From Sphaerolaimus hirsutus (lineage: Eukaryota > Nematoda > Chromadorea > Monhysterida > Sphaerolaimidae), in assembly GCA_964036195.1 (NCBI GenBank), contig OZ038450.1:21047208-21111207 (forward strand): a DNA stretch of 64,000 nucleotides, given 5' to 3'. The translations under genes were made by a program, and so were the position numbers. The notes under the pieces are model-generated. The model was not told the DNA's origin. It was given only the letters and a program-made list of their open reading frames with translations, and made no database searches. Positions 7,427 through 56,433 of this stretch are shown here, in pieces (the first letter of the stretch is position 1; every line of letters begins with the position of its first letter).

Positions 7427-9892
7427 ATGTCCGAACAAACCGACGCCGCCAGCCTGGCTAGGTGGCACTCTCGCACCTTGTAAAATGCCCTGTAAAGTGC
7501 CGAATTTCATGCAAAGTGTCAAACGTCGTGAAAAATGCCCATTGAGGTACCATTTCCCTGGGCACTTCAAATAACCTTTGACATCTTACACATGACACTT
7601 GACATTCTACGGGCCATTTTCCAGGGTGCGTGAGTGCGGCCAGTCTGCGTCGCGCCGCATTCATGTGCATCAGCGGCGCGTGCGTGTCGGTGCTCGCGGC
7701 GGCCATGTTCCTGCCGATGGTCATGCTGCATGTGCAGCGGGTGCACAGCGGCGCCGGCGTGACATTGGATGCGTGCGCAGTGAGTGGAGTGTGGAGGGGA
7801 ATGTCGAATCTGTTGAATATCGACTGAAAATGGCGCGACACAATCTAGTTTTCATGGTTTTTATTTGAAAACTCTATCGAAATCTTGTCGATCTCATGAA
7901 TCACTTTTTCATGTACTTATCATTTTTATAAACTAATACCTAATTGCACCCTAATACTAGGTAGTGCGCTGAGTCTAGGTAAGTGGTCAGTTACGTGATG
8001 GTGGAAGCGTCAATCAGCGTTCACGTCGCCAGTCAGTTCTTGAACGAGTTTTGAAATGGCACCCATGAAAACTAGCTTGTGTGGCCACAATGCGTTTTCG
8101 ACAATAAGTTTTGATGATGTATTTATTATACGTGTGCTCACGTTTTATGTCTGTCAACTGTTCACGCAGGGTCCTTGAATGATTTATTTTCATCCATTCT
8201 CTAAGGTGTTTTGAAAACGCATTTTCAGTTGACCGCTAGTTTACTGTCAACTATGACTGTACAGAGCGCAAATCGACAGTACATCCGCAGCACTCCATCC
8301 AATAATCTGCATATGTAAACATGTAAACGTTAACAACAATACAGAAACGAGTTCGGGAAATGCGCCGCACGGTCGCCAGTGTAAAGGCGGAGTCTAGTCG
8401 ATTGCTGGCGACGCAGAATTTCGATCACGAGTTCGTCTCACAAATATACGAGGACACGGAACTGTGGCAGGAGACAGAACGACACAAAAGGGGATACGGC
8501 CCAAAACCCGAATGTTTGCTAAGCCAAATTTCCACTTCCACCAAAAAATGCACCCTTTGTTCAACCATAACCCACTTTTTAAGGCTGCACATGCCTCAGG
8601 GGTCGCCCAGGGAGTACCGGCCCTCCTGGCGACCCTGGTCAGGATGGATTACCTGGCATCCCAGGATTTCTAGGACGCACAGGGGCTCCTGCCCCAAACA
8701 TAGGCCCTGACTACTTCAACAAACTCAAAAGGAAACAGTGTCCTTGCAGAGGACCAGCTGGGAAAAATGGGAGGCCTGGAAAGTTGGGTAATAGAGGCCC
8801 TCAAGGTTTGTTGGTGTGATTGTAGCATGGACATTTCATGTAGGTAGCTAAAATTCCACCAATTCAGGCACTAGGGGCAGTGCAGGGAGGCCGGGGGTTA
8901 GAGGCCAGAAAGGACTAAAGGGACCTGCGGGACACCCAGGGGGTAGAGGGGATGTGGGCCGTCCTGGAAGAAATGGAAAGCCTGGCTCATTGCGTCCTGG
9001 AAGCAAGGGTCACACAGGTATAGTGGAGTGCGTACTTTGCGCAGAATGCAACCATATGTTAACTAATAAAATCGTGTGATAAATTTCTTAATTGATTATT
9101 TCATAGTAAAAACGAATTATGATGAAAAAGTTTTAGTTTTGAAATTTATTTTGTAATTTTCGGCTCATTATTCAGATGGGTATGGTAGGTTGCCATACTA
9201 AGTGTGATGTATGTCCGCCGAGAATCAAAGCCATAAAAATGAGAGATCGTATTTTCAGCAAGCTCAAGTGTTATACTTTTACAGGTAAGCCTGGAAAGCG
9301 AGGCGGACCAGGACCGAGGGGACCCAAAGGGCCTCCTGGAAAATCTGGCAGGGATGGTTCTGCAGGACATGTGGGCCCGAGGGGAAATCCAGGCACACCC
9401 GGCACACCAGGTAAAACTGACTGGGCCAAAATCAACAACAGTCTCTACTTAAAATAAGTATTTATTGAATTTATCTACAGTTGAAGCTACATAGAGACAG
9501 AATGACAGTTGATGACAGAATAGACCTACCTACATAGAGAAGGTATTATGTGCAGCTTTAAAAATAAATATACAGGGATATCAAAAATATACAGCATAAG
9601 GATTTAAGGGAAACTCCAAAACAGGACATTTTTACCATACACAGATTTGATCCATTCATTCTATAGTGAACTCAACTTTACAGCACTTTACTTTATTTCA
9701 CTTGAAGTTGACTCCCAATCAGAATTTTCCTTTAAAAACATCATCCCTTTCTCACTATCAGGTCACAATGGCCCCAATGGACTGAGGGGTCGCCCAGGTG
9801 CAAAGGGTCCCAGCGGCAGTTGCCAGCACTGCCCCCCACCCAGGCAGGAGCCAGGCTACCCACCCACCAGGTCTCCGTATAACAAGCAGTGA
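7427..9892 (+). CDS. Cuticle collagen 2
   Basis: Proposed exons are 7427-7461, 7644-7779, 8345-8513, 8584-8805, 8868-9017, 9285-9410 and 9762-9892, giving 323 codons without a stop. The ATG follows GCCGCCACC, a strong start context. After splicing the N-terminus reads [18 protein letters not shown] and runs into the nematode cuticle collagen N-terminal hydrophobic domain, ending LDAC. Exon 3 ends [13 protein letters not shown] with a dibasic cleavage site. Exon 4 begins CTC before Gly-X-Y, with an internal CPC, and the C-terminus is [15 protein letters not shown], matching the family. The exon 3 donor (8514, GTTTGC) is weak and the least certain junction. Intron 1 is exactly one introner element. 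It probably arose with collagen 1 by tandem duplication. Confidence 0.88.
7462..7643 (+). mobile_element. Introner: palindromic element that is exactly intron 1 of cuticle collagen 2
   Basis: The 182-bp intron starts GTGGCACTCTCGCACC at its first base and ends GGTGCGTGAGTGCGGCCAG. The two ends are inverted copies, and the interior words CCTGTAAAGTGCC and CATGCAAAGTGTCAAACG are answered by inverted forms. Splicing at the element edges joins GCT AG to T CTG and restores the collagen N-terminus in frame (phase 2). No host sequence remains in the intron except the terminal AG. Confidence 0.9.
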
Positions 9893-12153: not shown

Positions 12154-12257
12154 GTCTGTAGTACTTACCAATGCTGACTGAGGTTATGTGCGTGCATGAA
12201 TTACCTGCTTTTTGACGAAACTACTCAGCTACCCCACCATTATTTGTATTGTACAAC

Positions 12258-18111: not shown

Positions 18112-18315
18112 GTGCCGGTTCCGCAAGTGGAAAAGTTAAGAGATAAAACTCAAGAGTTGAGTAAAATGATAAATGATAAGTTAAGAGTTGAGTAAAATCA
18201 TTTGTCGGTTTACTCAACTCTTAACTCTTAACTTTTCTCATAACTTGTCATTTGTCATTTTACTCAACCCTTAAGTTTTAACTCCTCACTTTTCCACTTG
18301 CGGAACTGGCCCCTG
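18112..18315. mobile_element. Foldback MITE, GTGCCAGTTCCGC family
   Basis: Left GTGCCGGTTCCGCAAGTGG and right CCACTTGCGGAACTGGCCC pair. Both edges carry CTG, a 3-bp duplication. The interior is an inverted set of AAGTTAAGAGTTGAGTAAAA words. It is intergenic. Bases 18316-19525 downstream show no gene. Confidence 0.8.
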
Positions 18316-21760: not shown

Positions 21761-24700
21761 ATGTCAATAAATCTGTCCAGACACAAGGATGAATTACTGC
21801 ACGCCTACAATGATGTTCTGAATGCGGACACTGCAGCAAAATGGTAAAATATTGAACCATTTTCACATAAATGTACAATATCATTCAAAGTGTGAACAGT
21901 CATGACGTTTGATATTTCACAGGGTCTTTTTCTCTTAACCTGGCTGAAAATCGAATTCCCACAGGGCACTTCTGGGCTACGAAGCCAAGTCGAATGTGTT
22001 GCGCCTGTGCGAGACGGGCATCGAGCTGGACGACCTAGTGGCGCAGTTCAACGCTGGCATGATACAGTACGCTTTGGTTGGCTACACCTGCCTCAGCACA
22101 GGCAGGCCAAAGTTGATGCTGATTCATTGGGTTTGTTGCTATCGATTGTGGTGCTATCGACTTTATTCATTTCATCAAAGTGGAATTATTGTGATCTTTG
22201 CAGCAAGGTGAGGCGGCTGGAGGGCAGAGATTGGCTGCATGTGCTACTCATTTGGCTGAAGTACAAAAATTATTTAGTGTTGGTTGGATTTTTATCGGTT
22301 TTTCTATGTTAATGACCATATATTACGATGAAAATGCCGGAATTTCCAGTGCTTCAAGCTTTGGTAGCTTTTAGAAGATGGCATCTAGATGGGGCCACTC
22401 CTAGACCCTGTAGGATGTCAAATGTCAAGCAGTGTTAAAAGTCATGAAAATGCACTTAAAAATGTCAAATATTCTTTTATTTCTTTTACTGTACGTTTGA
22501 CATTTTTCATGAAAATTTTACGTCTTTTGACACTTTCATCATTTTACATTTTACAGGATCTGTGAGTGGCATGTGGCCCTAGCTTAATGGCTTCTACTTT
22601 ATTAGTGCTGCACTAAAGCTGCCTACGCAACTGATCAGCTGACTAAAAATCGATCATCCACTTAATATTGCACCACTTGCAGGCAGTCACAGTCGTTCAT
22701 CACGGTCGAGCTGAGGAACATGTTGACATGGCGGCGCTCGAAGCCAGCGCCAAGAAAGTGCATGGAAGTTTACAACTGGCCCCAAGTGTGGACATTGCCA
22801 TCAAACCGAATCCACCACCAACACAAGCAGTCAAGCCGCAGCCAGCAACGCCACAGCAGAATGACCAGGTGCCACTCCCAGACCCTGTAAATTTCCTTGT
22901 GAAATGTCAAATGTCATGCAAAGTGTCAAAAGTCATGTAAAATGACGTGGAAAATGGCAAACATGTCATTTTACATGACTTTTGACACTTTGCATGACAT
23001 TTGACAGTTTACAGAGCATTTTACAGGGTCTGGGAGTGCCCCCAGCCTGCCGTGATTGTGAATGGCACCAGTGAACCCAGCCCCAGACAGAAACAGCCCC
23101 CGATGCCCAGCGCCAAACCGAAACCTTTGAAGAAGCCGCCAGCGCCGCCGGCGGCGCACAATGGGCACATTGCGACTAGTCCGAAAGTGAACCTAGCGGA
23201 ACAGGCAAAAAAGCAACTTTTTAATGCTCAGGTCGGTTTTAAATGTTTTGACTGAAATTTGTAAAAATTAATTCATTGTGATTTATTAACTTGCTAAATA
23301 GGTATACGTTTTATGCGTTCATACATTTATGTAAATACAACATTTCCGCAGGGCGCCCAATATGAAAAAGTTATCGCCACAACGGACGATGCACTATGTC
23401 CACAAACCAGGGAGCAATTTTGGGAAGAAATTGAGGTTTGTCACAGATTTCATGTTGTAAAGATGCATCTTCAAGCATTTCTTCATAAAAGTGTAGCTAC
23501 AAAATTTTGTTTAAAATGGATATCTATTTACGCTACAAGACATTTTCAATATCGATTTTCAATCATCGTATTGGCTCTGCGCACACTAGTACACCACCGA
23601 ACCTTGGGAAACCCATAAATTGAAAAACCCATAAACTGTTTTGAACAAGTTTGAGTTTACCAGAATCAAGATTCTGTCGACTACTGTTAACGGTGAACAA
23701 AATAATTAATTCTGATAAACTCAAATGTGTTCAAAACAGATTCATCATACCTTTCACAAATTTCGACGTTTGTACCAGTGTGCGCGGCCACATTGCTCCA
23801 GAAATCGGGGGGGGGGGGGGGCATGCAATTGACCAAACTGGCTAGCTAATAATTCAGTTGACCGCATACTTCATACTTGATATTTTTCATCAATTCTTTT
23901 GAGTTTTCGGCCATCAATTCAAAATGTCAACTAAGAAATACCTCTGCAACGCAGCGCGAAGACCGCGAACGCGTCAAATCGGAACAAAAACGACTAGCCG
24001 AACAAACTCAAGCCTTGGAGAGGGACAAAGCGATCCTCGCCAAGGAAATACACTCATCACTGCAGAAAGCAAAGAGTACATTTGGCGCTGGCAATGTGCC
24101 AGTGCAGAAACAGAATGATGGCTCAAAGCCAGAGACGAATGGTAAATCACCATTGAAAAGTCCCAGTGTGAATGTGAAGGTGATCAATCAAGCTGCGGCT
24201 AAGGAGTTGGAAGGGAGGGATGAGTTTTGGAGTCAGATTGAGGTTGGAAAAAATTTGCTTCAAAAATTTATCATATTATTTAAATGTTGTCAAGTATTTA
24301 GAACTACAGGAATCGAAACTTTCAATTTACCTACTCTGTGTATATGTGTGCCCATCAAGTGAACGCATTTGTTTCATTATTATTTTTTTGTAAAATAGAG
24401 CTGATTAATGACTTCGTTTCGCTTTTGCATGGTTGTATTGCTCACACATGACATACAAATTTGTGTCAACTAAATTATGTTATTTCAACTTTCCTAGCTG
24501 ATAGAGCATAGGTAATTTGATATCGTGACACTTAATTTTCATTATTGCGGTCAAGTGTGATGCTTTTTTGTGTCATTAAGTTGACATTTATTTGCTATGT
24601 CAACTACCGTGTGTGTGGGCCCATCGCGTTTGGATCCAGTAATGAGCTACTTAGGTATCCGTGCAGCCTACTAAACCCACCAACAAAACCCCCTATTTTC

Positions 24701-27700: not shown

Positions 27701-28302
27701 AAAACCCATTCCCGGCATGGGGCTGCAGGCTTGGGCGTTGTGGGATTATCAAGCTGGTCGGTTTTGGGTTCGTCTGCAGAGGCCAGTTCCGCAAGTGAAA
27801 AGATAAACGGCAAAAACAAGTTGAATGAGAAGTAAAATGGCAAAAGCAAGTGAAATTACTTTTTATTTTTATTTTTTACTTGGCTTTTGCCAATTTACTT
27901 GCCATTTTACTTCTCACTACTCCACTTGCGGAACTGGCACAAGGTGCGCATAATTTAATGGAGTTGACAAAAAGTCAGCTCAAAGCTTTTTGTAAAATGC
28001 CTATCAAACTCCTTGGCTCGCTGCCAAGTAATCATGTAATGGCGCCTTTTCTGTATCGCCTTGGTAACCGGCGCCATTGTTGAAAAGCTTCTCTACCACT
28101 ACTCCAAAGTGTCAACTCATAACAACACCACAAACAATTATAATATCCAAATAATCACTCAGCGGACGAGACGGAAATCAGCTTCGAGCCGGGCGACATA
28201 ATCTGCAACATTGACCAAGTCGACCCCGGCTGGTGGCGCGGCCAGACTTTGACCGGCATGCACGTTGGCCTGTTCCCTGCTAACTACGTCGAGTTGCTCT
28301 GA
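21761..28302 (+). CDS. DBNL: Drebrin-like/DBNL actin-binding adaptor
   Basis: Proposed exons are 21761-21843, 21965-22130, 22204-22260, 22683-22868, 23046-23231, 23352-23435, 23955-24242, 24704-24919, 25015-25372, 27431-27756 and 28163-28302. Exons 1-4 give an ADF-H domain ([20 protein letters not shown], then [13 protein letters not shown] and [10 protein letters not shown]), as in Abp1/drebrin proteins that bind F-actin. The middle is Pro-rich followed by charged predicted coiled coil ([17 protein letters not shown]). Exons 10-11 form a C-terminal SH3: [19 protein letters not shown], then GWWRG and FPANYVELL. It likely links actin to endocytosis at the cell cortex. Exons 6-8 show an internal duplication. 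Phase matches everywhere except exon 9 to 10 (phase 1 into phase 2), so a small exon inside the repeat-filled 2-kb intron or a sequence error is unresolved. Intron 4 is exactly an introner. Confidence 0.9.
22391..22579. mobile_element. Introner-family element inside DBNL intron 3
   Basis: GGGGCCACTCCTAGACCCTG at the left and CAGGATCTGTGAGTGGC at the right are inverted ends of the introner family, with TGTCAAATGTC words between. Here it sits inside a longer intron (22261-22682), so its edges are not used as splice sites. Confidence 0.8.
22869..23045 (+). mobile_element. Introner that is exactly DBNL intron 4
   Basis: The 177-bp intron begins GTGCCACTCCCAGACCCTG and ends GGGTCTGGGAGTGCCCCCAG. 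The preceding exon ends CAG and the intron also ends CAG, which fits a 3-bp target duplication with the element's own GT as donor and the duplicated AG as acceptor. Removal joins NDQ to PAVIVNG in phase 0. Interior CAAATGTCATGCAAAGTG pairs with the inverted CACTTTGCATGACATTTG, so the intron RNA can fold into one long hairpin. Confidence 0.93.
23574..23790. mobile_element. Foldback MITE, GCGCACACTAG family, in DBNL intron 6
   Basis: CTGCGCACACTAGTACACC at the left is answered by GTACCAGTGTGCGCGG at the right; AACTCAAATGTGTTC and its inverse lie inside. It is related to 77-271. A G-run of 12 follows at 23809. Confidence 0.7.
25393..26877. mobile_element. Long foldback element (about 1.5 kb, arms about 700 bp) in DBNL intron 9
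   Basis: AAACACCTTCCCGATCAAGT at the left end is repeated inverted at the right end. Further inverted pairs run inward in order: TCCCACACAGGTCCGGCC, CCACACAAGTCCAGCA, CACATGAACCCCTCCC and CAGCAAATTTTCTTATGAAG, converging near 26135. The arms differ by point changes. No protein-coding content was recognised. Confidence 0.88.
26921..27398. mobile_element. Repeat related to CAGAGTTG elements (right end CACAACTCTG)
   Basis: The sequence from ACTTTTGGAAAGTACA through TTGTTGCTAAAATAA is repeated at 54190-54480. It ends TTTTTTCACAACTCTG, the inverted tip of the CAGAGTTG family. No left tip or target duplication was found; it is probably truncated by the neighbouring foldback. Confidence 0.6.
27780..27943 (-). 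mobile_element. Foldback MITE, GTGCCAGTTCCGC family, in DBNL intron 10
   Basis: GGCCAGTTCCGCAAGTG at the left and CACTTGCGGAACTGGCAC at the right are inverted. The GTGCCA end is on the minus strand, opposite to the gene, so it offers no donor in sense and lies as a passenger in the 406-bp intron. Confidence 0.75.
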
Positions 28303-28865: not shown

Positions 28866-28925
28866 TTACGATGATATTTAAATAGCCAGATAATCAATTA
28901 TGGAACCCTGGTAAAATAATGACTA

Positions 28926-29350
28926 CCGTATTACCTCGAAATACCCCCATGGGGGTTTATTATTTCGCCAGCAAAATTAGAGGGGGGTTAATTCGAGTGG
29001 GGGGTTTATTCGAGGGGGGTTTTATTATTTCGTCAGAATTTTTCGTAAGGATCGTAGTAAAAAGTGGGTACCCAAAACAGGTAATTTGCGTACCCAAAAC
29101 AGGTAATAAATGTGTCCAAATGGGGTATTTTTGGACATAGAAACGTGGATAGCTAAACAAACTAGTCCATGTGTAGCTGCAATGCAAATTAGCAGTAATA
29201 TACATCATGTACATTGTATACATGACGTATTTATTACGTACATGACGTACATCATTCCGAAGGGGGGTTTTTCGAGGGGGGGGGTTATTATTTCCCCAGC
29301 CCATTTTGAGGGGGGGTTAATTCGAGGGGAGATAATTCGAGGTAATACGG
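28926..29350. mobile_element. TA-flanked G-rich foldback MITE
   Basis: CCGTATTACCTCGAAATACC and its inverse TTCGAGGTAATACGG are flanked by TA. Inside, words like GGGGGTTTATTCGAG replace the C-runs of the collagen-region copies. Bases 29351-30378 hold no recognised gene; TATAAAAA at 30262-30269 lies 110 bp upstream of PDGF-like gene A. Confidence 0.8.
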
Positions 29351-36300: not shown

Positions 36301-39300
36301 ACGTTTACGTTTACGTTTTCCAAAAATAACAGTATTTTAACAACACTGGGCTTTTCTGGCATAGTGTAGTATGTATAGTCGGCAGACATGATATTATACA
36401 GGTTTGGTCCACTTATGTTTCCCTTCGCTGAGCGTCAATGAAATTCAATATCTTACTGAACAGTGAAGTGCGATACATCTTAAATACGGTAGAAAAACGG
36501 TGCACAGTGGGTCGTGAATATGTGAATATGTATAGTCGACGGACATATCATTCTACAAAATTGGAAAGTTATATTTTGTTCTTGTAGAGCGAACGAGAAA
36601 GGAATTTAGTATAAAAAAAAATATAAAGATAGTAAGAAGGAAAATAAAAATGTGCTGTTCTTTACGCACTCGTTTACTCCAATTTTTGTGCCGATAGGTG
36701 CTGCAAATTTTTGATTATACGTTTACCTACGTTTAATCTAATTCATATTTAGAAAAGTTACACACTATCGATTCATTTTGACGAAAACTTGTTACGTTCA
36801 AAATTTTGAATTCAGAAAACTTTCCCGCTTTGTATTTATTCAGATCCAGACGACGCTTGGATGGCATCATGCCAAAAAACTCAACTACACTTTGACGGGG
36901 GTTTGAATTGTGCGGGCACAATTGAATAGTTTCATTCCGTATATGCGTAAGCACGAGTCACCAAAACAGAGTTCTACGGGTTGGATACAGCGTGCATGAT
37001 ATGACATCATGTGACTCATTGTATAGTATCATGTCTGCCGACTATACTTGAATGAACTTAAATAATAAGAACAAAGTAAAATGTAAGTTCAATCAACGAC
37101 TATAATACAATAGGGATGAATACCTAATTGACTGTCATCATGAAATTTTATAGATCTATACATTTGTACTAAAGTCGGCGGACATTTCACCCTACAAAAT
37201 CGGAGAGTTAGAATTCGCTCGCGAATAGAGCGAACACAAAACTTGGGTCCCACCCGGACACTCGGCAATCAAAAAGAAAAAAATATTAAAAGAGAAATGG
37301 ACGCTTCGCCTGTCTGTGCGTGCACGCCGCCCGTTTCAACGTTTCGTTTCAACGTTGTCCGTTGGAAGCGAAAAAATTTGACTGTTTTAATGATCCTTTT
37401 ACCGTCTTTGTTAATTTTTCATTCGTTGGCTCCGTTCCAAGGGAAGAGTCCCCATATGAGAACTTGGCGGCCAGCCAAAATTGCGAAATCCGCTATAAAT
37501 GTGAATAAAAAAGGCTAACACTTAACTATATAACCATGTATATAAACAAAAATAGCGATTATAAAGGTGGATTTTGGCAAAGTGGAGCAACTTTTAACGA
37601 TTTTTACCTAACATTGACTTTTCACTCGCATTTGTATAATACGCAACTGGAAACTGGGATACGAGCCAAGTTTTCATACGTGACCCGATCCATTCCAATC
37701 ACTAAAATATTGCGTCACAATAATGACGACATGCACTCTCCACTGGAGAGACTGACGCAAATGTTTGTAGGGCGATACGTCTGCCGACTTTATCTTTCGA
37801 CATCGCAGCAGCGGATAATCACTGCGCACCGAAAAATGCGTGCATGCGCATTCCGTGGCGGCCGCAATTAGATAAGGTCCTGCACCCCAGGTGCGTGCTG
37901 GTGCCAGTCCTAGACCCTGTAAAATGACCTGTAAAAGTCAAATGTCATGCAAAGTGTCAAAAGTCGTGTGAAATGCATTGTAAAATGAGAAACATTTGCT
38001 GTTTTCCAAGGCATTTTACGTGAACGTTTTGACTCCCTGCGTGGGATTTGACATTTACAGGGCATTTTACAAGGTTTAGAACTGCTCCCAGATCCCCCGA
38101 TGTTCGGGAATCTGTGAAAACGAGAACAGCGCCTGCACTGCGGACCATTCCAAACGTGTCAGCGTACTTGTGCGTTGTTTGAAATTTGTCTTTAGGTGCA
38201 GTTAAGCATAACGATAAATAGAAGGTGATATGACAAATAAAACGTCACCGAAAAATTCATTATTTACATTTTTCAAGTTTTTTTTGAAAATTCATGTTTC
38301 ATACTCTATTTTTCGCAATAATTTATCATGTGCGAGGTGTGAAATTCGAATTTGAATGAAAGACGTTCGATGAAAAATATTCCAACGTCAAATCAATTTC
38401 ACGGTGATGCCCTAAAATCAATTTGTCGGCAGTCATTGTTCATCGAACGTTTTTCATTCAAATTCAAATTTCACACCTCGCACATAATAAATTTTTTGCG
38501 AAAAAAAGAGTGAAACATGAATTTTCAATAAAAAAACTTGAAAATATGAATTTTTCGGTGACGTTTTATTTGTCGTATTACCTGAGTTACAGCACAACGA
38601 CAAAATAGGAGCTGAAGCGACAAATTCAGTGTCGACATATCACAAATACCCAAGAACGCTAAAATACCTATATCTATCCATTCTTAAGGATGTTGAAAGC
38701 ACTAACCCATATCTGCATCGTGTCCAAAAATCATCCAAAAAGCTACAGTAGTTTTCGAAATATAAATTAAAAATAAATATTTCATCTATTTGTCGGCAAT
38801 TCCAACAAGAAATGTTGCCGACAAATAGCAAATTTCCTATTCTGATTTATATCTTAAGAACCAGTGGAACGTTTTGGATAGTTTTTGGACACAATGTAGA
38901 TATCGGTTAGTGCTTTTAGCATCTCAATTTGAGGATAGATATCTCGAAGCGTTCTTGAGTATTTGTAATTTGTCGACACTGAATTTGTGGCTTCAGCTCC
39001 TATTTGTTGTTGTGCTGTCTTATTTTGCTTATTTTATTTTGTGGTGAAGCTTTACATATTTTACGTCAGACTGTGATTTGAAATGATATTTTTTGGGATA
39101 GGTTGCCTATTGTGTAGTTTTTAAATATTTGAATCATCGAAACTCATATAACAAGACCAGTCCTGCTGCAAACTGCTCTAAATACTAAATATTTACCGTA
39201 TTTCATCAAAATACCGCCCTCGTCTAATCCGGGACAGGCCTATATTGCACATAAACCCGTTTCGCACATATTTACGCCCATTTCGCACATGGATGTAACC

Positions 39301-41449: not shown

Positions 41450-41657
41450 GTGCCAGTTCCGCAAAATGAGAAGTGAGAAGAGAAATGGCAAAGGCTAAGT
41501 AAAAGCGCAAAGGCGAAGTGAAATGGCAAGTGAATTGGCAAGTGATGTGGCAAAAACGACGAGAAATTACTTTTTCTTTTTCTTTTTTACTTCGATTTTG
41601 CCAATTCACTTGCCGTTTCACTTCGTCTCACTTCTCATTTTGTGGAACTGGCCCCAG
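41450..41657. mobile_element. Foldback MITE, GTGCCAGTTCCGC family
   Basis: It begins GTGCCAGTTCCGCAAAATG and ends TTTTGTGGAACTGGCCCCAG, so like the introners it has GT at one end and AG at the other, but no gene surrounds it. Bases 41658-42561 contain a truncated CAGAGTTG-type end near 42080 and no recognised gene. Confidence 0.8.
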
Positions 41658-42561: not shown

Positions 42562-43404
42562 CTAACAATCCTCGCTGCGTTTCGCGGGCGCCCTGGAATT
42601 GGTCACTGGCACAGTGCACGCATTGCAGGGGATTCTTTTCCGGCCCTCGGCGATCTCGTTGCCCACGAGCATGGTGCCCTCGATCTCGACGCCGTTGTGC
42701 GCGATCACGCACATGCTGAATGGTTGCAATCTGCCATCGATCACCCTGGTGCCGGTTTGCTCGTAGGCGAAGTCGCCTGTGGGGGGGGGGGGGGGGGTAA
42801 TTGAGCCGGGTGCCACTAAACGACATTGTTAAGTGCCCTGTGAAATGAAAAATGTCATGCAAAGTGTTAGAAGTGATGTGAAATGTCCTGTGAAATGCAC
42901 TGTGAAATGTGAAAAAATCGGTCAAAAATTGACATTTATCATGACATTTTGGCTGCGCGCACAGTGTATCAACTGGTATGTGTCAACTCAGATTTCGCTT
43001 GTCGCAAAGGGTTCTCCAAACGACCACAAGTCAATGTTGAAGAATAGACATTAGGCGAGTGCATTGAAAGATGGCTCTGCGACTCGTGAAACCGTGTATG
43101 GTGAAACACGTGAAACACATGTGTCAACTAGTGTGTGGGCCGCCTTTACTTCACTTTTGACACTTCGCTTGACATTTGGCATTTAACACGGGATTTTACA
43201 GGGTCTAGCTAGGGTGCCCGCAAGCTTTAATCTGATTCCCAACAGGCTTTCTAAAGCACCTAAATAATTCAGTAGGTTTCTAGTTTGCACCTGATCAATA
43301 TAAATTTGTATTTTACCCACCGTTATCCTGGCACTGCGGGACTGCCACATTGTGTCCCGCATCTTTATCAGCCTGAAGCGCTTCGCGAAGTCGCACGCAC
43401 TCCG
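42562..43404 (-). CDS. Small cysteine-containing protein, 3' exons only, family not recognised
   Basis: Two exons are supported on the minus strand: 43404-43317 (preceded by CTCAG, donor GG|GTAAAA) and 42776-42562 (acceptor CCACAG, ending in TAG). They join in phase 1 to give RSACDFAKRFRLIKMRDTMW, then DFAYEQTGTRVIDGRLQPFS, and a C-terminus with PCNACTVPV and SEDC. I do not recognise the family; spaced cysteines suggest an extracellular protein. The 5' end is not found, and upstream exons may lie beyond 43.45 kb. The intron holds an introner copy with another MITE nested inside. The short VGNEIAEGRKRIPCNAC stretch vaguely recalls the VGHNI...CAC segment of the neighbouring growth factors, but not enough to call it one. 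Confidence 0.55.
42810..43220 (-). mobile_element. Introner-family element with a nested MITE, in the minus-strand gene's intron
   Basis: GTGCCACTAAACGACATTG starts the left side and ATTTTACAGGGTCTAGCTAG with GGGTGCCC ends the right, with CATGCAAAGTGTTAGAAG inside. At about 42955-43142 a CACACTAGTTGACAC-family MITE (GCGCACAGTGTATCAACTGG ... CAACTAGTGTGTGGGCCG) is inserted. It lies wholly inside the intron 42777-43316. Confidence 0.75.
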
Positions 43405-45200: not shown

Positions 45201-48200
45201 ATGCCAAACAAATTGATCGAGCCGCGTGGGTGTCCGCTGACAAGAAACTCTGCAATAAAACCAGTCGCCAACATGTCAAAAGCGGCGATATTAATATGGC
45301 TCATGGTTAGCGTGATTTCGGCTGTGGTGACATTTGCCGCGTTGTTCATGATTCTGATGCGTGTGAATGTGAACGAGCAGCCGAGACCGGATCCAGAAAA
45401 TGGATCGGTTATGACGATGGAGAATATTCTATTGAATCGAACTGAAGGTTTTAATGAGGTAAAAGTTGAATGTTTGCGACTCTGTTGGAGAATGATCAAT
45501 ATTTAGTTATTGCAATCATTTTATCTTGATATTTACACGCGTGTATTCTTTGCAAGGAGCAGTAAGTAACAATCTTTGAAAACAACATGGAGTTTGAAAA
45601 CACCATGGGGTCGTCCCGCACCCTGAAAAGTGTTAAATGTGATGCAAAATGTCTTACAAATTTATCAGATGTCATACCAAATGTCAAAAGTTCAGTATTA
45701 AAATAAAATCTCTTCTTTTCAATTTGATTGTCATTTCGCGCGACATTTGACATTTGCCACGACATTTCACAGAGTGCTGGACTGCCACCACACTGAATCA
45801 AAAACCCATCACTAGTATCACCAGCAACACCACTCCCAACCCACCAAAACCCAGACGCTCACCTGGTCAACCACCGAGGGCCACTCATCTCACTCTGGCC
45901 AGCCCCTCACAGCGGGCATGCACGAACAGGCGGGAGCGCCCATCCCGGAGGACGTGCGCAGGCGCCTCAATCGCATCACCTCCCCCGAGGAGCTCGGCGA
46001 GGAGTTCGTCGTGACCATCGACAATGATAATGAGAGTGAGGGGCAGGTATATGGATTTGGGGTGGGCGAGGCCATGCCGCCGCCTGCGGTGCCTCTTGTG
46101 CAGGTTGGGGTGGGGGGGGAGGTTGAGTGTGACTGTATTTTGTGGATCTGGATGCGGATTCATTTCTTGTTTTTAGGCATTTCAATTGATTTTCGGAAGG
46201 TGATGTGATGTGTCAGCAGTCAGCACTGTAAATATAAATTGATGATAATAAACATGAATGTTACCAGTTTAAGTTGAATGCCAAAATAATTGGTTAATGA
46301 AAACCTATTTTTACAATAGGTAAGTTGATCGCAAATTCTCATGAAATTCTCACAAAAATTTACTTCACCCCTTGTATAACTCCCCAGTTAAAAAAACTGA
46401 TGAAAAAATCTCCACTGATAACTTATTCCAGGATTTCCCACTTCGTAAATACCGTATTTCCTCGAAATACCCCCGGGGGGTTTATTGTTTCAGAGTGAGA
46501 ATTTTGAGAGAAAAACGTGATAAATGCAACAATAACCACCATTTTTAAGTTTTTACAGCCTTATATAAGGATGTAGATGGTATAAACGATGTTCTAACAC
46601 AACACAGTAAGTGTTTTGAACATCTGTTATGCGTTTCCCGGACCACAAATCCATAGTGCCCATTTTGAGGGGAGGGGGGTATTTCGAAGGGGGGGGGGGT
46701 ATTTCGAGGAAATACGGTATATTTACGATATCATACTTACGACCTGTCAAATTTCTTTCATCAAAAAGTTCAAACTGAATTCAGAAAGGCGAGGGAGGTG
46801 CCGCGTCCATGTCCAAGCCGGTGGTCAATTTCGCCATCAGAGACATCAACCACGAGAGAAACCGCAGTTAGTGCATTGGAAATTGATTGATCTGTATTTT
46901 GTTTGTTTGTTGGATATTGGGGCGGGGGCCGGGGATGCTGTGTTTGTCGAAATTTACTTTTTTTAGCTCCACAAACACGGAAAAAATGTTTGCTTTTGGT
47001 ATTCTACTTGACAAGCTTCCGATATGTGTGGGCGGACTTTCAACAATAAATTTTATAAAATGTACACAAACATTTCCATTGTATTTTTTTCGGTCGACTC
47101 TTCTGCGACAAAAATCGAGTACAAGCGGTAAAAAATTTTCAACTAAAATATCTATGAATCATAACTAGGTAATTGTGCCGCATTGTGTGATAGAAAGAAC
47201 GGAATGTTTATTTATGGACCTTGTCCTTGAGTTGTACAAATGGACTCGACTTCAAAACTATTTACAGTCTAGTGGAATGATGTACCCGGACATGAACAGT
47301 GAGGAAATTTTATTGCCAAAAACGTCCAGAATTATTAGACAACCTCGGCAGTTTGCTTACTTGATTGAAAACGAAAAACCTGCCCGATATTTGCAATGAA
47401 TTCATAATTGGTAGCTACACTAATACAATGAATCTAGCCCGAGAATATAATGCGGTCCAATTAAATCCCGCCCCAAGTACCATTTTTCGATACCTAGCAA
47501 TACTATCAATCTCGATGGAAATCACTAATAGCTGCACATCAGGCAAAACTACAAGTGCGGTTTGCCCTAACAAAAATCAACCTTCAGATCTGTACCAGAC
47601 GATTACGAGCGGAAATGTAGCGAATGGAAACGCATCTGATACTGGTGGAGATTCGGATACTAGCGGTGAAGATATTGAAGTTATCAGGCATCCGAGGAAA
47701 GGTGAGCGTAAGAAATTGCGTTGGTATACTCGGCGGACCGCAAAGCATGCGCAGAATTATACCATAATTAAATTAATAAAATCTTGTGAAAAATTTCGTA
47801 ATTAATTACTCCACAGTAAAAACCAAATAAAAAAAACTGTATAATTTTTGGTTATTTGTTCAGATGGGTTATGGTAGGTTTCCATACCAAGTGTGATGTC
47901 TGCCGAGTATAAGAATTTGTTTATTATTTCGAGTTAATGCAAAAGTAAAATGGGAATAGCGCACCACCACTGAACTGACATCATTCACTATAATAAAATC
48001 TTTTTCGGTAACTTAAACCTTCCTGAAGTATGCATACTGATCGGACTGAACGCAAAGCGTGTTAACGTTTCTGATGAATAAAGTCATGTTACCGTATTTC
48101 TTCTAATAGAAGAGCGCCGTTCTATTTTTTTCGTCTGCTTTTTTACCTGCCGTTCTATTGGAGGCTGCCGTTCTATTTTTTCACCATTTTTTCTCACGCA

Positions 48201-50021
48201 GATTTCTCATTTCAACATAGCCTTTTTTTAGTGAAGCTTGAGCAATATTTTAATATCAGAGCATCAATTGAAATTTATTTGAGTACTTTGAATGCTCTCA
48301 CAATCCATTGTGATTGATTTCTGTGTATTGCTGGCACACTCCCAACTTAATTCCTACCTGCCGTTCTATTGGAGGTGCCGTTCAATTAGAGGGTGCCGTT
48401 CTATTGTTTTCGTGAGTGCAAAAACGTGCCAAAACCTGCCGTTCTATTGGAGGTGCCGTTCTATTGGAGGTATGCCGTTCTATTAGAAGAAATACGGTAC
48501 ATTATAAAGCGTGTGCGCTCAGTAGACTCTATGCACGATAGAAAAAACAACTTCCCAACCCCCAACCTCCCAACCCACTCACCAGCGGGCGACCAGTGCG
48601 TGCTGATGGAGATCTGCGTGCCCTTGCCCGTGCCCAAGCAGATCTCCCAGTACGTGTTCCCCGCGTGCATCGCTCTACCCCAGTGCGTCGGCGGCTGTTG
48701 CGACCAGGACGATGCCTGCCACGCCAGCGAGACCAGGCCAGTTATTGTACATGTGAGTGATGGGGGTTGCGGGAAGATTGGTGGATTTTGAGGGTGGTTT
48801 AGTTTGCCCCCTCCCCCCCAATGTTATTGTGATCTGTCACATATGTCACATTTTAGTTAAAAAACAGAATGACCAAAACAAATTCCTTTTCTAAATTGTC
48901 TATGTTTCAAATATGTCTATGTCTATAAATGGTGAATACCCCTGGATATCTGCGCTCAGTGGACATCAGCAGCACATGTGCCGCTGCTACATGGTGCCAC
49001 GAAGCTGGTGCCAATACACTGGTGCCGCGCCACATTCCCAGCTATCATCATCTCTGCATGCAGCTGCATTTGGACAATGGCTAGTTGCCTTGCAGCATCT
49101 GCGCTTTGCCACCTAATGATGCACACATCCTGCTCAGAAGATGTTGTGACAACACAATAGACTATCGCAATGTGCAGCACAGTTGGTGTGTTGAGCACAC
49201 AGCCATGGCGGCAAAATGAAGAAGTTACAGATGGTTACAAACTTACAGCTGGCGCATGTGTCCAGATGTCCAGTGAGCGCGGATGTCCGCTGCGCCGAAA
49301 TGTCTAGATTTTCAGGAAAAAAATTGCACGAAACTGCAGCACCCATCAATAATAATGAGACGCTCTCTAACACTTCTACCACTATAAAGGTACCAATCAC
49401 CTCTAACCCCCCCCCCCAACCAAAAGGCCCTACGCTACGTCTACTCGGGCACGGGCAAGTTCGTCGGCCACAACATCACCGTGCGCATGGAGAAGCACAT
49501 CGAGTGCGCCTGCAGAAAGTGCACCAGGCAGAAGCGCTCGTGCCACGCCAATCAGATCAGGCACAATTGCAACTGCGTCTGTCCCAATGCATATGAGAGG
49601 GCCCAGTGCACTTGTGAGTGTTGGGTTAGGGAAGTTGAGAGCCTGAATTTGAAGCTTCAATCTGGTGCCAGTTCCAGACCCTGTAAAGTGTGAAATGTCA
49701 CGCAAAGTTTCAAAAGTCATGGAAAATGTCCTAGACAATGACAAATGAAGAAACGAAGTTCAGATAAATTTACATTACTTTTGACAATTGCACGACATTT
49801 GACATTTTACACGGTCTGAGAGTGCTCCCAGATGGATGGAACCACATTCAATTTTCCTTGGTGTACTGTGTGTAGATCGCTGAGTTCGCCCAAAATTGTT
49901 TTTTTAATGATTTTGTTGTGCACACGCAGACCCGCGGTCGTGGGACGAGGACGCGTGCGAGTGTCGGTGCAACATCGTGTGCCCCCCTGGACAGCTGTCC
50001 GACGCCCAGTCGTGCATGTGA
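45201..50021 (+). CDS. PDGF/VEGF-like growth factor B
   Basis: Proposed exons are 45201-45458, 45903-46103, 46785-46866, 48586-48752, 49427-49613 and 49930-50021; phases match at every junction and give about 328 residues. Exon 1 supplies a hydrophobic segment (AAILIWLMVSVISAVVTFAA) after 24 residues, so membrane insertion as a signal anchor is possible; a shorter start at MSKAAIL fits a signal peptide better. Exon 2 is a prodomain (SPEELGEEFVV, FGVGE). Exon 4 holds the cystine-knot core CVLMEIC, YVFPACIALPQCVGGCC. Exon 5 gives VGHNITVRMEKHIECACRKC. Exons 5-6 create CTYPRSWDEDACECRC, the C-x10-C-x-C-x-C motif of VEGF-C/D and invertebrate PVFs. Assignment of exon 1 to this gene and the GTTAGT donor after 46866 are the weakest points. 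Secreted ligand for a receptor tyrosine kinase, inferred. Confidence 0.82.
45607..45790. mobile_element. Introner-family element in intron 1 of PDGF-like B
   Basis: GGGGTCGTCCCGCACCCTG at the left and ACAGAGTGCTGGACTGCCAC at the right are diverged family ends, with GTTAAATGTGATGCAAAATG and inverted CATTTGACATTTGCC words inside. It sits within a longer intron (45459-45902). Confidence 0.7.
46452..46717. mobile_element. TA-flanked G-rich foldback MITE in intron 2 of PDGF-like B
   Basis: CCGTATTTCCTCGAAATACC and GGTATTTCGAGGAAATACGG are a near-perfect inverted pair flanked by TA, with G-runs of 6-10 between words. Short and little diverged. Confidence 0.85.
46950..47920. other. Unresolved repeat-like region with two short open frames
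   Basis: Open frames at 47175-47399 and 47365-47805 have no recognised domain and overlap in different frames. The 47785-47910 stretch (ATGGGTTATGGTAGGTTTCC, CAAGTGTGATGTCTGCCGAG) is repeated at 9060-9225 in a collagen 2 intron, so part of this is a dispersed repeat whose edge resembles the GTCTGCCGA element tips. It lies within intron 3 of PDGF-like B. Confidence 0.45.
48092..48497. mobile_element. TA-flanked foldback, CCGTATTTCTTCTAATAGAA subfamily
   Basis: CCGTATTTCTTCTAATAGAA and TTCTATTAGAAGAAATACGG are exact inverted ends flanked by TA. Words TGCCGTTCTATTGGAGG repeat on both sides. It ends 88 bp before the cystine-knot exon of PDGF-like B. Confidence 0.88.
49665..49831 (+). mobile_element. 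Introner-family element in the last intron of PDGF-like B
   Basis: GTGCCAGTTCCAGACCCTG at the left and CGGTCTGAGAGTGCTCCCAG at the right have the GT and CAG edges in sense orientation. It is embedded in a longer intron (49614-49929) whose outer sites keep the reading phase, so its own sites are probably redundant or alternative. Confidence 0.85.
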
Positions 50022-52896: not shown

Positions 52897-55800
52897 ATGG
52901 CAAAAGGGTTGCTGTTTGTGTGTCTAGTGGTAAGTAAGAGTGTGATTACGGCTGTGGAAAAAGTGTAGTGGTGCTTCGCTGGTTTAGAGCACTCATGTGA
53001 ACATTCAGCCAAGAAGCCTGGCCAGAGACCGCGCCATAATTGCCATTTTGCAGGACATTTTCCATGACTTTTGACACTTTGCACGACATTTGACATTTTA
53101 CAGGGCTTTTTCCAGGGTCTGGGCTTGGCTCCTGGCCGAAATTTTCTGCAAAGCAAACTACAAAGAGTAAACCGCAACACCAAAAACGCAGACACTCGGC
53201 TGGCCATCAATCAGTTCGGCTCAGTTTGAGCAGCACTTTTGGCAGCGACCGGCAGCGGAGCGGCGCGACCCGTCGCCCGACGAGCTCAGCGAGCAGATCG
53301 AGTTCGCGCTGGCAGGTGACCGTGGCAACGTGAACGGCTTCGGCGTGGGGGATGAAACACCGTTTGTGCAGGTCGGAGGGGGGGGGGGGGGGTTGTGAGT
53401 AGGTAGACTTTTGTGTGTCGGGGTGTACTGGGACTGGGTCTGGTGAAATCAAAAATAAAACTGTGTATCACTAATCGGTTCTCAGAAATCAAATCGGTAG
53501 GTCCTCCTGATCATTTGCATCTATTGTTGAATGGAGTCAAAATCGACCATCACTGGTGGGCCCATACCCAAAATACCCCCTCTATTTTACCCATTGCCAA
53601 ACCCTATGCTCTATGGTGTTCATACGAGTGATATCGCAGAGAGACAAAGGTGAATCCAAATCGGGGGCGCAGCAGCCAGCGCCAGGAGGCGTCGCACGCG
53701 ACAGCCCACCAGGCGGTCAGTCTGTGATACAAAAATAGGCGTTTACTGCTTTAGTTTGTATTTTTTACCACACGCTTGTAGAATGCTCGCAGAAAAAATC
53801 ATGGTGAGTCACTCACATCACATCTAATTTTGATAGAAAGAACATAGGTATACGGTACTTCCTCGAAATACTCCCAGCTTGTTTATTATTCTGCCAGCAA
53901 ATTTTGAGGGCGGGGGTTAATTCGAGGGGGAGGGGGTATTTCCCCCCAGCACATTCAGCGATACTCCTAAATAGTGCATTTAAATAGTTTCTCCAACACA
54001 AACAGATCCCACAGACACAGATGCTGCACCTGCCGACAAAGAACCTGCTGAGGTACTTTGGTCTCCGAAACAAGGTCAGTTTGAAACTAGGTAAATGCAC
54101 CCGAATATCTACCTAGGACCTACCTAGGTAGATTCATTTTAAAAGTGCAAAAGTGTCATACTGTGAAAAAGGCGGCGCTTGTATAAAGCATGTAAAAAAA
54201 CTTTTGAAAAGTACACGTGTACAGCAAATGTATTTCAGAAATTTCAAATCGCAATGTCTTGTTGCTAAAATAACGAAATCTTGATGATATCATATCATTT
54301 TTCTACAATAATATTTACTAAATAATCATTAACAACAACATCTATCATTTATTTCAGTGTAAAAATCACTCTCACATGGTAAAAAGTATTAGCTTTTACA
54401 TTTTCCATGAAAAAATACCCGTAAAAATATTCTAAAAATACCATTTCCATATTCTAAGTAAAACTCAATTTCACATTTTTCTGGAAAAAAGTAACTTACT
54501 CACATGTAGAGTTCAAACGGGATCCTGAATCCCGAGAAGTTTCAGGATTTTGTGGTCCCGATCCCGATCCCGAAACCTCAATCCCGATCCCGAAATTTGA
54601 AAAAGCCAAACCTGATCCCGATCCCGAGATTTCGAAAATCCCAATCCCAATTCCAAAAAATGCCCCAATCCCGATCCCGGAAAAATTCACAGACACAAAA
54701 GATGCCAGAAATGGCACTTTTAAAGGACCATTTTGTATCCAGTTTGCAAAAATTTTGCACGCGAGTGCGCATTTCCCAACCTCCCTCTATATCTCTGTTG
54801 CGTGGGCATGGACACCACTACAAATGGACTCGATACAGTGCCCATTACCATAGTTTAAGGTTAATACACAAGCATAAATGGTAGACAGTGGTGTGAATGA
54901 CAATGCCAGGCAGCCCATTGCGCAGTGCCTAAATGATTCCATAGCAGTGTTTTGGATGCCAATTTAATCCAACGTTTCTGGCATTGTTTCGGTTTTGGGT
55001 CATTTTGTGAATTGTCAGGTAAAAACCGTGACAACCAATTTTTTAGGCCTAAATCCCAATCCCGAAAAAAGCCAATCCCGATCCCGAAATCTCAAAAAAT
55101 CAATCCCGTTTGAACCCTACTCACATGCACTCACTACTACAAATGATTACAGAAAAAATACGTATTTTACATTTTCCACGCCCAGCAGTGTCTCAAAAAA
55201 GTATTTTACATAAATACACTTTAAAAAAGTACCTTCAACAACTCGGCGACAGTGTACGACCGGTGCGTGCTGCGTGCCGGTGCCGGGCGCCGAGGACACA
55301 GAGCTGTACGTGTTCCCCCGGTGCATCGAGCTGCCGCGGTGCGTCGGCGGCTGCTGCAGTCGCTACCGCACCTGCGACGCGGAGATCACCAAGCCAGTCA
55401 TAGTGCACGTGCGTTTGAGTGGAGGGGCGTCATACTGTCACCTAAATAATTGGCGGCCTACACATTAGTTGACACATGTGTGTCAACTCAGATTTCAACT
55501 TAACGTGTGGCACAGCGATCTCCCAATGCACTTGCCTAACATTTATTTTCCAACATTGTCACATGTGCATCAGGAAGCGCTCTGCGCATGTGAGGCCGAA
55601 ATCTAAGTTTACACAGGTGTCAAATAGTGTGCAGGCCGCCAATTAGTCCCCCAGTGAGAATTATGAGTGATAGCTCTCCTACTTTCACCCAACACCAGTA
55701 GTTGACAATGACACCAGATATCAACTATCAACAGTTTCCGATCTCAATTCAAAGTTTCCTGACGAGGCGACAAATGACGTTCCAATGCAAAACCGTTGTA

Positions 55801-56433
55801 TAACGTAGCAAATGCAGCTCTAGTGTTGAATTAACGGTTCGGGTGTCGGTTCCGGATATCAAGTTCGATCCCAAAAGTTCCGGTTGCGAATTAAAAATAA
55901 TACGGATTCGGGTAATGATGTCCCTTGGCTTATGATCCTCGCATCATTATTCAGAACTCGCCCCAACTGGGTCTAGGCTCCCTACCTCCAGCACATGAAC
56001 ATCCCCTGCTACGCCCCCCCCCAACACCGCAGGCGCAACGCTTCAGGCACGTGGGCGGCACCACCCTGGTCGGCCACAACATCACCGTGACCATGGAAAA
56101 GCACGTTGAGTGCGCCTGTCAGAAGTGCGAAAGGTGGAAACGCGGCGACTATGTGGTCAAGGATGATGTGCCAGATAGTGGACTGGGGAAGGAGCAGGTG
56201 CCAGATAGTGGACTGGGGAAGGAGCAGGTGCCACTTCCGGACCCTGTAAAATGTCATGTGAAATGCCAAATGTCATGCAAGTGTCAAAAGTCGTGTGCAA
56301 AATGCCCTGGAAAATGGTAAGCGAGTTTGAGCGGAAATTTTACATGGCTTTTGCCACTTTGCATGACCTTTTACTTTTACAGGGCACTTTACGGGGTCTG
56401 GGAGTGTCCCAGTTGTTATCCAAATATCTTTAG
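52897..56433 (+). CDS. PDGF/VEGF-like growth factor C
   Basis: Proposed exons are 52897-52929, 53225-53371, 53640-53715, 54006-54052, 55253-55408, 56033-56227 and 56413-56433; phases agree throughout, about 224 residues. Exon 1 starts MAKGLLFVCLV, part of a signal peptide. Exon 2 carries the prodomain SPDELSEQIEF and NGFGVGDETPFVQ, parallel to paralogue B. Exons 3-4 are a charged/Pro-rich linker. Exon 5 is the cystine-knot core CTTGACCVPVPGAED, YVFPRCIELPRCVGGCC. Exon 6 gives VGHNITVTMEKHVECACQKC and then diverges from B into a duplicated VPDSGLGKEQ. An introner forms the last intron and the final exon adds only LLSKYL. It lacks the Cys-rich tail of B. An alternative exon 5 start at 55230 is possible if exon 4 is skipped. 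Secreted ligand, inferred. Confidence 0.82.
53008..53132. mobile_element. Diverged introner-family element in intron 1 of PDGF-like C
   Basis: AAGCCTGGCCAGAGACC at the left and GGGTCTGGGCTTGGCTCC at the right are an inverted pair; GACTTTTGACACTTTGCACG and TGACATTTTACAGGGC are the family words. The left half is shortened. It is inside a 295-bp intron. Confidence 0.7.
53854..53955. mobile_element. Fragment of the CCGTATTTC G-rich foldback
   Basis: CTTCCTCGAAATACTCCCAG and AATTCGAGGGGGAGGGGGTA match family words, but the right tip is missing. It lies 50 bp before the small fourth exon of PDGF-like C. Confidence 0.55.
54150..55246. mobile_element. CAGAGTTG-related repeat with nested element, ending next to a PDGF-like C exon
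   Basis: 54190-54480 matches 26921-27270 (for example AAATCGCAATGTCTTGTTGC). The right end TACCTTCAACAACTCGG resembles the inverted CAGAGTTG tip. It is interrupted by 54507-55119. The right tip stops 6 bp from the knot exon, so the region before that acceptor is element-derived. The left tip and target duplication were not resolved. Confidence 0.6.
54507..55119. mobile_element. hAT-like MITE, TAGGGTTCAAAC family, duplication CTCACATG
   Basis: TAGAGTTCAAACGGGATCC and CCCGTTTGAACCCTA are flanked by perfect 8-bp CTCACATG (54499-54506 and 55120-55127). CCCGATCCCGA words lie at both ends, as in 1892-2363. Confidence 0.93.
55452..55640. mobile_element. MITE, GGCGGCC-CACATTAGTTGACAC family
   Basis: GGCGGCCTACACATTAGTTG and AATAGTGTGCAGGCCGCC are inverted ends flanked by AATT on both sides, a possible 4-bp duplication. 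It is the cleanest copy of the family interrupted at 40110-41680 and nested at 42955-43142. It lies in intron 5 of PDGF-like C. Confidence 0.82.
56168..56227 (+). repeat. Two exact 30-bp tandem coding repeats beside the introner
   Basis: GTGCCAGATAGTGGACTGGG plus GAAGGAGCAG occurs twice, encoding VPDSGLGKEQ twice. Each unit begins GTGCCA after a G, as the introner does, so the exon end carries two in-frame CAG|GTGCCA junctions (56197|56198 and 56227|56228) that could both act as donors. Confidence 0.95.
56228..56412 (+). mobile_element. Introner that is exactly the last intron of PDGF-like C
   Basis: The 185-bp intron begins GTGCCACTTCCGGACCCTG and ends GGGGTCTGGGAGTGTCCCAG. CAG lies on both sides, a 3-bp duplication, so splicing leaves one CAG. 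The paired words CAAATGTCATGCAAGTG and CACTTTGCATGACC fold it into a hairpin. The reading frame continues for six codons to TAG. Bases 56434-56779 downstream hold no other gene. Confidence 0.92.

What the first reader, a model, noticed from the sequence alone, without database searches (positions are those of the whole stretch)
7462..56412. A transposon family that makes introns (introners) in a nematode-like animal
Four palindromic elements (7462-7643, 22869-23045, 37901-38091, 56228-56412; 177-191 bp) are exactly coextensive with introns of four different genes. The donor GT is the first two bases of the element (GTGCCA or GTGGCA) and the acceptor AG sits at its right edge. Splicing at the edges restores phase and homology in each case. 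Introners are established in some algae, fungi and other eukaryotes; I know of few animal cases.
Basis: partly seen in the sequence, partly recalled or inferred. Interest (0 to 1): 0.97.

Follow-up and report, generated by a model that had tools for sequence, protein, structure and literature searches.

The report
Jumping DNA that becomes introns
A family of short jumping DNA elements in a roundworm-like animal appears to insert into genes in such a way that the cell can splice each copy out as a brand-new intron, which has rarely been reported in animals and shows step by step how introns can be born.

Summary
The four elements are real, at the stated edges, and belong to a very large family in the window's own 348-Mb genome: the 23-base left end occurs 1,126 times exactly, reversed control 0. 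A fifth copy placed as an intron lies at 49665-49831. The family is a palindromic DNA transposon (MITE) with a 3-bp CWG target duplication: 922 of 1,126 exact left ends follow CAG or CTG, and an empty site confirms it. When the target is CAG, the left end supplies GT and the duplicated CAG supplies the acceptor, so splicing would restore the original sequence. Exact removal restores the frame better than shifted removal (24 of 36 decided cases, p 4e-5). Spliced products match known proteins across the junction in six genes, one below cut-off, including PRP8, the core splicing factor. CTG copies, about as common, lack the acceptor. Target and GGG right end match NuwaI transposons (PIF/Harbinger relatives); the transposase search did not complete. 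Introners are a known kind; this animal case is a new, unusually transparent member. RNA evidence is missing.

The parts
7462..7643 (+). Element 1 = intron of a cuticle-collagen-like gene; left flank TAG, right end CAG; 23% diverged from majority
7427..7461 (+). First exon of the cuticle-collagen-like gene (ATG to donor)
   Evidence: read; Pfam on the spliced peptide
22869..23045 (+). Element 2 = intron in a drebrin-like gene (name from eye reading of ADF-H- and SH3-like exons, not tested); CAG/CAG duplication; 82-bp arms 89% complementary
37901..38091 (+). Element 3 = intron inside the PDGF/VEGF domain of a PDGF-like gene; left CTG, right CAG
   Evidence: (PDGF E 5.2e-6 across the junction)
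49665..49831 (+).
56228..56412 (+). Element 4, CAG/CAG duplication, near the 3' end of a third PDGF-like gene; six codons then a stop follow, so the intron call is weak
56168..56227 (+). Two tandem 30-bp copies directly upstream of element 4, each starting GTGCCA like the element
48567..48755 (+). Intronless paralogous PDGF exon (31% identical): reads straight through the position where element 3 sits
55250..55414 (+). Second intronless paralogous PDGF exon (33% identical) across the same position
2483..2788 (+). Cuticle collagen gene with uninterrupted N-terminal domain (no element)
   Evidence: Col_cuticle_N 8.3e-9
1428..1657 (+). Related subfamily B copy, CTG/CTG duplication, not an intron
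18112..18312 (+). Subfamily B copy, CTG/CTG duplication, not an intron
27780..27940 (-). Subfamily B copy in antisense, by eye inside a larger intron of the drebrin-like gene
41450..41654 (+). Subfamily B copy, flanks CAA/CAG; joined flanks show no clear reading frame
22390..22572 (+). Degenerate family-A copy, by eye inside a larger intron
42810..43218 (+). Longer, degenerate family-A copy (about 409 bp), not seen to be an intron
45608..45790 (-). Degenerate family-A copy; flanks show no open frame up to its edges
53030..53132 (-). Half copy of family A
21869..21971 (+). Fragment resembling family A (E 0.0002)

Best explanation
It is an introner: a non-autonomous DNA transposon of about 165-210 bp, almost wholly palindromic, that inserts into CWG (CAG or CTG) and duplicates those three bases. 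One end differs from its twin (GTG.. instead of GGG..), so that insertion into CAG on the coding strand yields CAG|GTGCC....CCCC|CAG. The element brings the 5' splice site and the duplicated CAG becomes the 3' splice site. Removal from GT to the second CAG restores the original coding sequence to the base, so the insertion is nearly silent and can be kept as a new intron. Insertion into CTG lacks the acceptor, and insertion in the other orientation lacks the donor, so such copies can survive only where splicing does not matter. Shown: family size, the CWG duplication with an empty site, the end asymmetry, frame restoration, and homology across the junction. Inferred: splicing in RNA, NuwaI-type transposase in trans, and the direction of the G-to-T change at the left end.
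For: Family size: 1,126 exact 23-mer left ends, reversed control 0; 7,045 places at up to 2 mismatches for CAG plus the left end, control 0. Target duplication: 490 CAG and 432 CTG of 1,126. Of 83 full copies with flanks, 43 are CAG/CAG and 7 CTG/CTG (sample partly chosen for CAG). Empty site: the joined flanks of the CTG/CTG copy in L044 match L043 over 398 bp at 97.2% with 0 gaps, and L042 over 337 bp at 93.5% with 8 gap positions. End asymmetry: in 37 deduplicated CAG/CAG copies (chosen for GT at the left), position 2 is G in 34 of 37 right ends; the full subfamily B copies mostly show the same asymmetry. Frame: exact removal gives the longest spanning reading frame in 24 of 36 decided cases, 8 for +1 and 4 for +2, p 4.4e-5. 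Retention puts a stop in frame in 37 of 37. Homology across the junction: PRP8 (E 3.6e-47 against 8ro0, no gap at the joint), carnitine acyltransferase (2.5e-16; ungapped at the joint with 1xmc), PRMT5 (4.2e-10), PDGF (5.2e-6), COMM (8.4e-5), MFS (3.5e-4, below cut-off). Controls: 0 of 10 shorter peptides from copies without a GT-AG pair at their model edges gave any Pfam match. Two PDGF paralogs in the window have no intron at element 3's position.
Against: No transcript was examined. Many copies are not introns: in the window only 5 of 14 are placed as introns, one of them (56228) weakly supported. Three of those five have unequal flanking triplets (e1 TAG/CAG, e3 and e5 CTG/CAG), so their history is not fully explained. 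Twenty-two of 28 junction peptides gave no convincing domain across the junction; one of these 22 had only a viral-family match that I judge chance (L013, NSs, 3.1e-4, below cut-off). Among 36 'other' copies exact removal also won 16 of 31 decided cases (p 0.027); that group includes copies that look like real introns with altered edges. Antisense reading of the joined flanks is also fairly open (median 96.5 bp against 125 exact and 86 shifted, 46 GT-AG copies). The intronless paralogs are only 31-33% identical, so loss there is not excluded by them alone. The flank sample was partly chosen by CAG or by similarity to one intronic copy.
Confidence: 0.93

Rival explanations
1. Ordinary MITEs that landed inside older introns, with the edges matching splice sites by chance or by slow erosion of the original intron ends.
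For: Some copies do seem to lie inside larger introns (22390-22572; 27780-27940 antisense). MITEs often sit in introns (general knowledge).
Against: In the coextensive copies no intron sequence lies outside the element; the duplicated CAG is both the last exon triplet and the acceptor. Removal at the element's edges restores frame and protein sequence without a gap in PRP8 and carnitine acyltransferase. Two distant paralogs lack the intron.
Confidence: 0.04
2. Introns that multiply through RNA (reverse splicing and reverse transcription), as proposed for some fungal introner-like elements (recalled), and only look like transposons.
For: Copies in genes are exact introns; the family is highly repeated.
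Against: Terminal inverted repeats, a 3-bp CWG duplication, CTG copies without an acceptor that are about as frequent as CAG copies (432 against 490), reverse-oriented copies and a paralogous empty site all point to DNA transposition.
Confidence: 0.02
3. The reading frames around many copies are spurious or belong to dead genes, so the intron match is an artefact of choosing the best frame.
For: Open frames of 60-120 bp are common by chance here (shifted joins reach medians of 84-94 bp; antisense 96.5 bp).
Against: The paired test against shifted joins controls for this; PRP8, carnitine acyltransferase, PRMT5, COMM and PDGF are recognisable genes.
Confidence: 0.03

Closest known systems
Introners (Gozashti et al. 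2022, PMC9860276; found passages and section 7 were read)
   Same: Many similar introns in unrelated genes, similarity reaching the splice sites, and in many families terminal inverted repeats and short target duplications; a described subtype carries the 5' splice site and co-opts the 3' splice site (their Fig. 2C legend).
   Different: Host is a nematode-like animal; [quoted passage not shown] Target is CWG, and one end differs from its twin so as to form GT.
NuwaI transposons of the PHIS (PIF/Harbinger-related) superfamily (PMC4482050; found passages and section 7 were read)
   Same: CWG target duplication; TIR usually beginning GGG (right end here); animal hosts.
   Different: Published hosts are bony fish, a beetle, a crustacean, a mollusc and an anthozoan; the section read mentions no nematode and no link to introns. 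Left end here begins GTG. Transposase not seen.
MITE-derived introns of the tunicate Fritillaria borealis (Henriet et al. 2019; seen only as a reference in a passage of PMC9169325, content recalled)
   Same: An animal in which transposon-like elements gave many introns (recalled).
   Different: Those introns are largely non-canonical (recalled); here they are GT-AG.
Nematode intron gains (PMC9169325; found passages only)
   Same: New introns in nematodes were studied.
   Different: The passage discusses the failure to identify source sequences for gained introns; here the source family is identified.
Introner-like intron in a bdelloid rotifer gene (PMC10597677; found passages only)
   Same: An animal intron described as having introner-like features.
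   Different: A single 940-bp intron judged by motifs, not a repeated family. The same passage lists Oikopleura, and 'Meloidogyne graminicola' called a fungus, which I take as a slip for a Mycosphaerella species.

Membership tests
Introner | Introns of unrelated genes share sequence up to the splice sites | tested here: met
Introner | Edges of the mobile element equal the splice sites, removal restores the reading frame | tested here: met
   24 of 36 decided cases against 8 and 4 for shifted joins
Introner | Intron absent from the pre-insertion gene | tested here: inconclusive
   Two intronless PDGF paralogs at element 3's site, 31-33% identical; the clean empty site found is for a CTG copy, not an intron; no orthologs available
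Introner | Spliced out of transcripts | not testable with these tools
   No RNA data
NuwaI (PHIS superfamily) | CWG target site duplication | tested here: met
   922 of 1,126 left ends after CAG/CTG; empty site
NuwaI (PHIS superfamily) | TIRs usually start GGG | tested here: inconclusive
   Right-end consensus GGGG.., left-end consensus GTGC.. in 37 copies
NuwaI (PHIS superfamily) | DDE transposase plus Myb/SANT protein in autonomous copies | not tested
   Family search PF13359 in the genome did not complete
CACTA/EnSpm | TIR starting CACTA/CACTG with a 3-bp duplication (recalled) | tested here: not met
   Ends are GTGCC/GGGGC

The most novel reading that the evidence does not exclude
A NuwaI-type DNA transposon became an intron factory through a single-base change at one end, because its preferred target CAG is itself the ideal exon edge, and has seeded hundreds to perhaps a thousand or more spliceosomal introns (a rough extrapolation) across a nematode-lineage genome, including one in the gene for PRP8, the heart of the spliceosome. 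This would be among the larger single introner families and, as far as the searches made here show, the first reported in this animal group.
Probability: 0.6. Interest if true: 0.85.

Novelty: new member of a known kind. Interest (0 to 1): 0.76.

Why it matters
How new introns arise, and why some lineages gain them in bursts, is a long-standing question, and few animal cases are in print. Here the whole route can be read from one genome: the target, the end asymmetry that makes a donor, the duplication that makes an acceptor, a built-in control (CTG copies that cannot splice this way), and intronless paralogs. Because many copies are little diverged from the majority (median 7.4% for 37 CAG/CAG copies), population data might catch introns while they are still polymorphic.

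Tried and rejected
Tried without result: the end motif in viral contigs (0 hits) and in bacterial/archaeal genomes (1 hit in a bacterial contig, taken as chance). Finding a transposase: the family search did not complete; the 12 open frames of 190 aa or more in the fetched loci, judged by eye only, showed none that I recognise as a transposase. Placing the animal by its mitochondrial COX1: not completed. PDB search with the COMM-domain peptide: 0 hits. Of 16 nucleotide matches that span a joint, only those of the L044 copy to L043 and L042 are clean empty sites; the rest are heavily gapped, partial, or fall in another repeat family.

Considered and rejected: MITEs in old introns, RNA-propagated introns, artefact of frame choice (see rivals). 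Set aside before counting: 58 partial hits, and full copies without 310 bp of flank or with identical surroundings (95 full reduced to 83); near-duplicate left flanks (83 to 80). Of 44 junction peptides printed, 28 were tested in Pfam (two of them, L013 and L053, with the acceptor moved by a base or so); 16 were not, some being duplicates.
Full report
WHAT IS THERE. The four elements are at the stated coordinates and share ends and body. A model built from them finds further copies in the window, and a second subfamily (B, GTGCCAGTTCCGC ends) is present. Element 2 with its flanks folds as RNA into a single hairpin of -125.5 kcal/mol, z -18.7 against shuffles.

GENOME-WIDE. The window lies in a 348-Mb assembly of 762 contigs. 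The 23-base left end occurs 1,126 times exactly and its reversed control 0 times. CAG plus that end with up to two mismatches occurs 7,045 times, control 0; these include other triplets than CAG. Exact CAG: 490; exact CTG: 432. So 922 of 1,126 left ends, 82%, follow CWG; three random bases would give about 3%. The near-even CAG:CTG ratio is what a strand-symmetric CWG target predicts.

TARGET DUPLICATION. In 81 sequences (350 kb, window included) I found 95 full and 58 partial copies; 83 full ones passed the flank filter. Both flanking triplets are CAG in 43 and CTG in 7. The sample was partly chosen for CAG. Removing the CTG/CTG copy of L044 with one triplet gives DNA that matches L043 over 398 bp at 97.2% with no gap, and L042 over 337 bp at 93.5% with 8 gap positions. 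The first is a clean empty site and shows 3-bp duplication.

END ASYMMETRY. In 37 deduplicated CAG/CAG copies, chosen for GT, the left consensus is CAG|GTGCCACTCCCAGACC and the right one, read inwards, CTG|GGGGCACTCCCAGACC. Position 2 is G in 34 of 37 right ends. Most of the full subfamily B copies listed differ between their ends in the same way. The two ends of a palindromic transposon should be alike; the difference creates a donor on one side and leaves a C-rich tract next to the acceptor on the other. That GGG is ancestral is inferred from the published GGG starts of NuwaI TIRs (PMC4482050, section 7).

INTRON TEST. For each copy I joined the flanks after exact removal and after removal one or two bases longer, and took the longest reading frame across the joint. 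Among 37 CAG/CAG copies exact removal won outright in 24, +1 in 8, +2 in 4 (one tie); p 4.4e-5 against one third. CTG/CTG copies: 1, 1 and 2 of 7, the rest ties. All other 36 copies: 16, 11, 4 (p 0.027); this group contains likely introns with altered edges such as elements 1, 3 and 5. Before deduplication, in 46 GT-AG copies, the median spanning frame was 125 bp exact, 86 bp shifted and 96.5 bp antisense. If unspliced, 37 of 37 CAG/CAG copies put a stop codon in the frame. Flanks of CAG/CAG copies are richer in G+C, median 52.3% against 46.0% (p 0.014).

PROTEIN TEST. I scanned 28 junction peptides with Pfam, one protein each. Matches across the joint: carnitine acyltransferase in L047 (2.5e-16), PRMT5 in L053 (4.2e-10, with the acceptor one base inside the model end), PDGF at element 3 (5.2e-6), COMM in L008 (8.4e-5) and MFS in L006 (3.5e-4, below the curated cut-off). 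The peptide of L060 gave no Pfam match but aligns over 108 residues to PRP8 in solved structures, E 3.6e-47 with 8ro0, with no gap where the element sits (TEDP|D). L047 also aligns without a gap at the joint with carnitine octanoyltransferase 1xmc. L050 has weak PI-PLC-Y and C2 matches on the two sides of its joint, in the usual order. One further match across a joint (L013, a viral NSs family, 3.1e-4, below cut-off) I take as chance. The remaining peptides gave nothing decisive, and the COMM peptide found no solved structure. Ten control peptides from copies without a GT-AG pair at their model edges gave 0 matches; they were shorter (56-70 aa against 66-120 for the test peptides), and one carried eight stray letters.

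PARALOGS. Two other PDGF-like exons in the window, at 48567-48755 and 55250-55414, run without interruption through the position where element 3 sits. They are 31% and 33% identical to it, so they show that the intron is not general to these genes, not when it came. A cuticle collagen gene at 2483 has an uninterrupted N-terminal domain (E 8.3e-9), while its neighbour carries element 1 shortly before the equivalent domain.

HOW IT WORKS. CWG is cut and duplicated. If the triplet on the coding strand reads CAG, the result is ...CAG|GTGCC...CCCC|CAG..., which the spliceosome can read as exon end, donor and acceptor. Splicing returns the target sequence unchanged. CTG targets have no such acceptor, reversed insertions no such donor. 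Splicing itself is inferred.

HOW MANY INTRONS. If exact removal always wins for true introns and one third of the time otherwise, 24 of 36 implies that about half of CAG/CAG copies are introns. Half of the full copies fetched by the CAG pattern were CAG/CAG (15 of 30). Applied to 490 exact copies and scaled by 7,045/1,126 this suggests several hundred to about a thousand introns. This is a rough extrapolation from a sample that is not random.

COMPARED WITH WHAT IS KNOWN. Introners are established. A survey of 3,325 genomes found them in 175, and among animals and land plants in only two groups, both animals (PMC9860276, passages); copepods are named. A study of nematode intron gain discusses failing to find source sequences (PMC9169325, passages). 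In the rows listed by searches of the open-access library for introner (40 of 67 papers listed), introner with nematode (3 of 3), introners with horizontal transfer (2 of 2), intron gain with MITEs (5 of 5) and introners with copepod or tunicate (10 of 363), I saw no report of a nematode introner family by title or abstract start; subscription papers and preprints are not in that library. By target and right end the parent is most likely a NuwaI transposon, but without the transposase I do not file it there.

LIMITS. No RNA, no ortholog, no transposase, no name for the animal. The flank sample is not random.

Noticed in passing
58639-61704 (+): A stop-to-stop open frame of 1,021 aa with a GIY-YIG domain (E 6.5e-5), by eye a Penelope-like retroelement (name recalled).
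   Followed up: partly
L060 and L061 (G000 C1, about 22.196 and 22.240 Mb): The PRP8 exon joint seems to occur twice about 44 kb apart, both with the element between the same flanks: a duplication after the insertion, or an assembly duplicate. Only L060 was tested as PRP8.
   Followed up: no
56168-56227: Two tandem 30-bp coding repeats that each begin GTGCCA sit directly before element 4; the second begins right after a CAG and so offers a further GT donor.
   Followed up: no
L002-L031: The 30 copies most similar to element 2 (itself included) are 24 CAG/CAG and 2 CTG/CTG, although exact left ends are nearly even (490 and 432). Intronic copies may be better preserved; the query's CAG flank biases this somewhat.
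   Followed up: partly
37901-38091 and 49665-49831: Both older copies have CTG on the left but CAG on the right, so either the left triplet drifted or a CTG insertion later gained an acceptor.
   Followed up: no
L080, subfamily B copy: CAG/CAG duplication around a subfamily B copy: a possible B-type introner.
   Followed up: no
3428-3889, 6135-6592, 28923-29356, 46449-46723 and others: Another repeat family with ends like ATACCGTATTTCCTCGAAATACCCC and inverted partners; not tested for introns.
   Followed up: no
12277-13179, 30977-31101, 31954-32066: Arrays of GGCGCCA-rich repeats that give long, probably spurious open frames.
   Followed up: no
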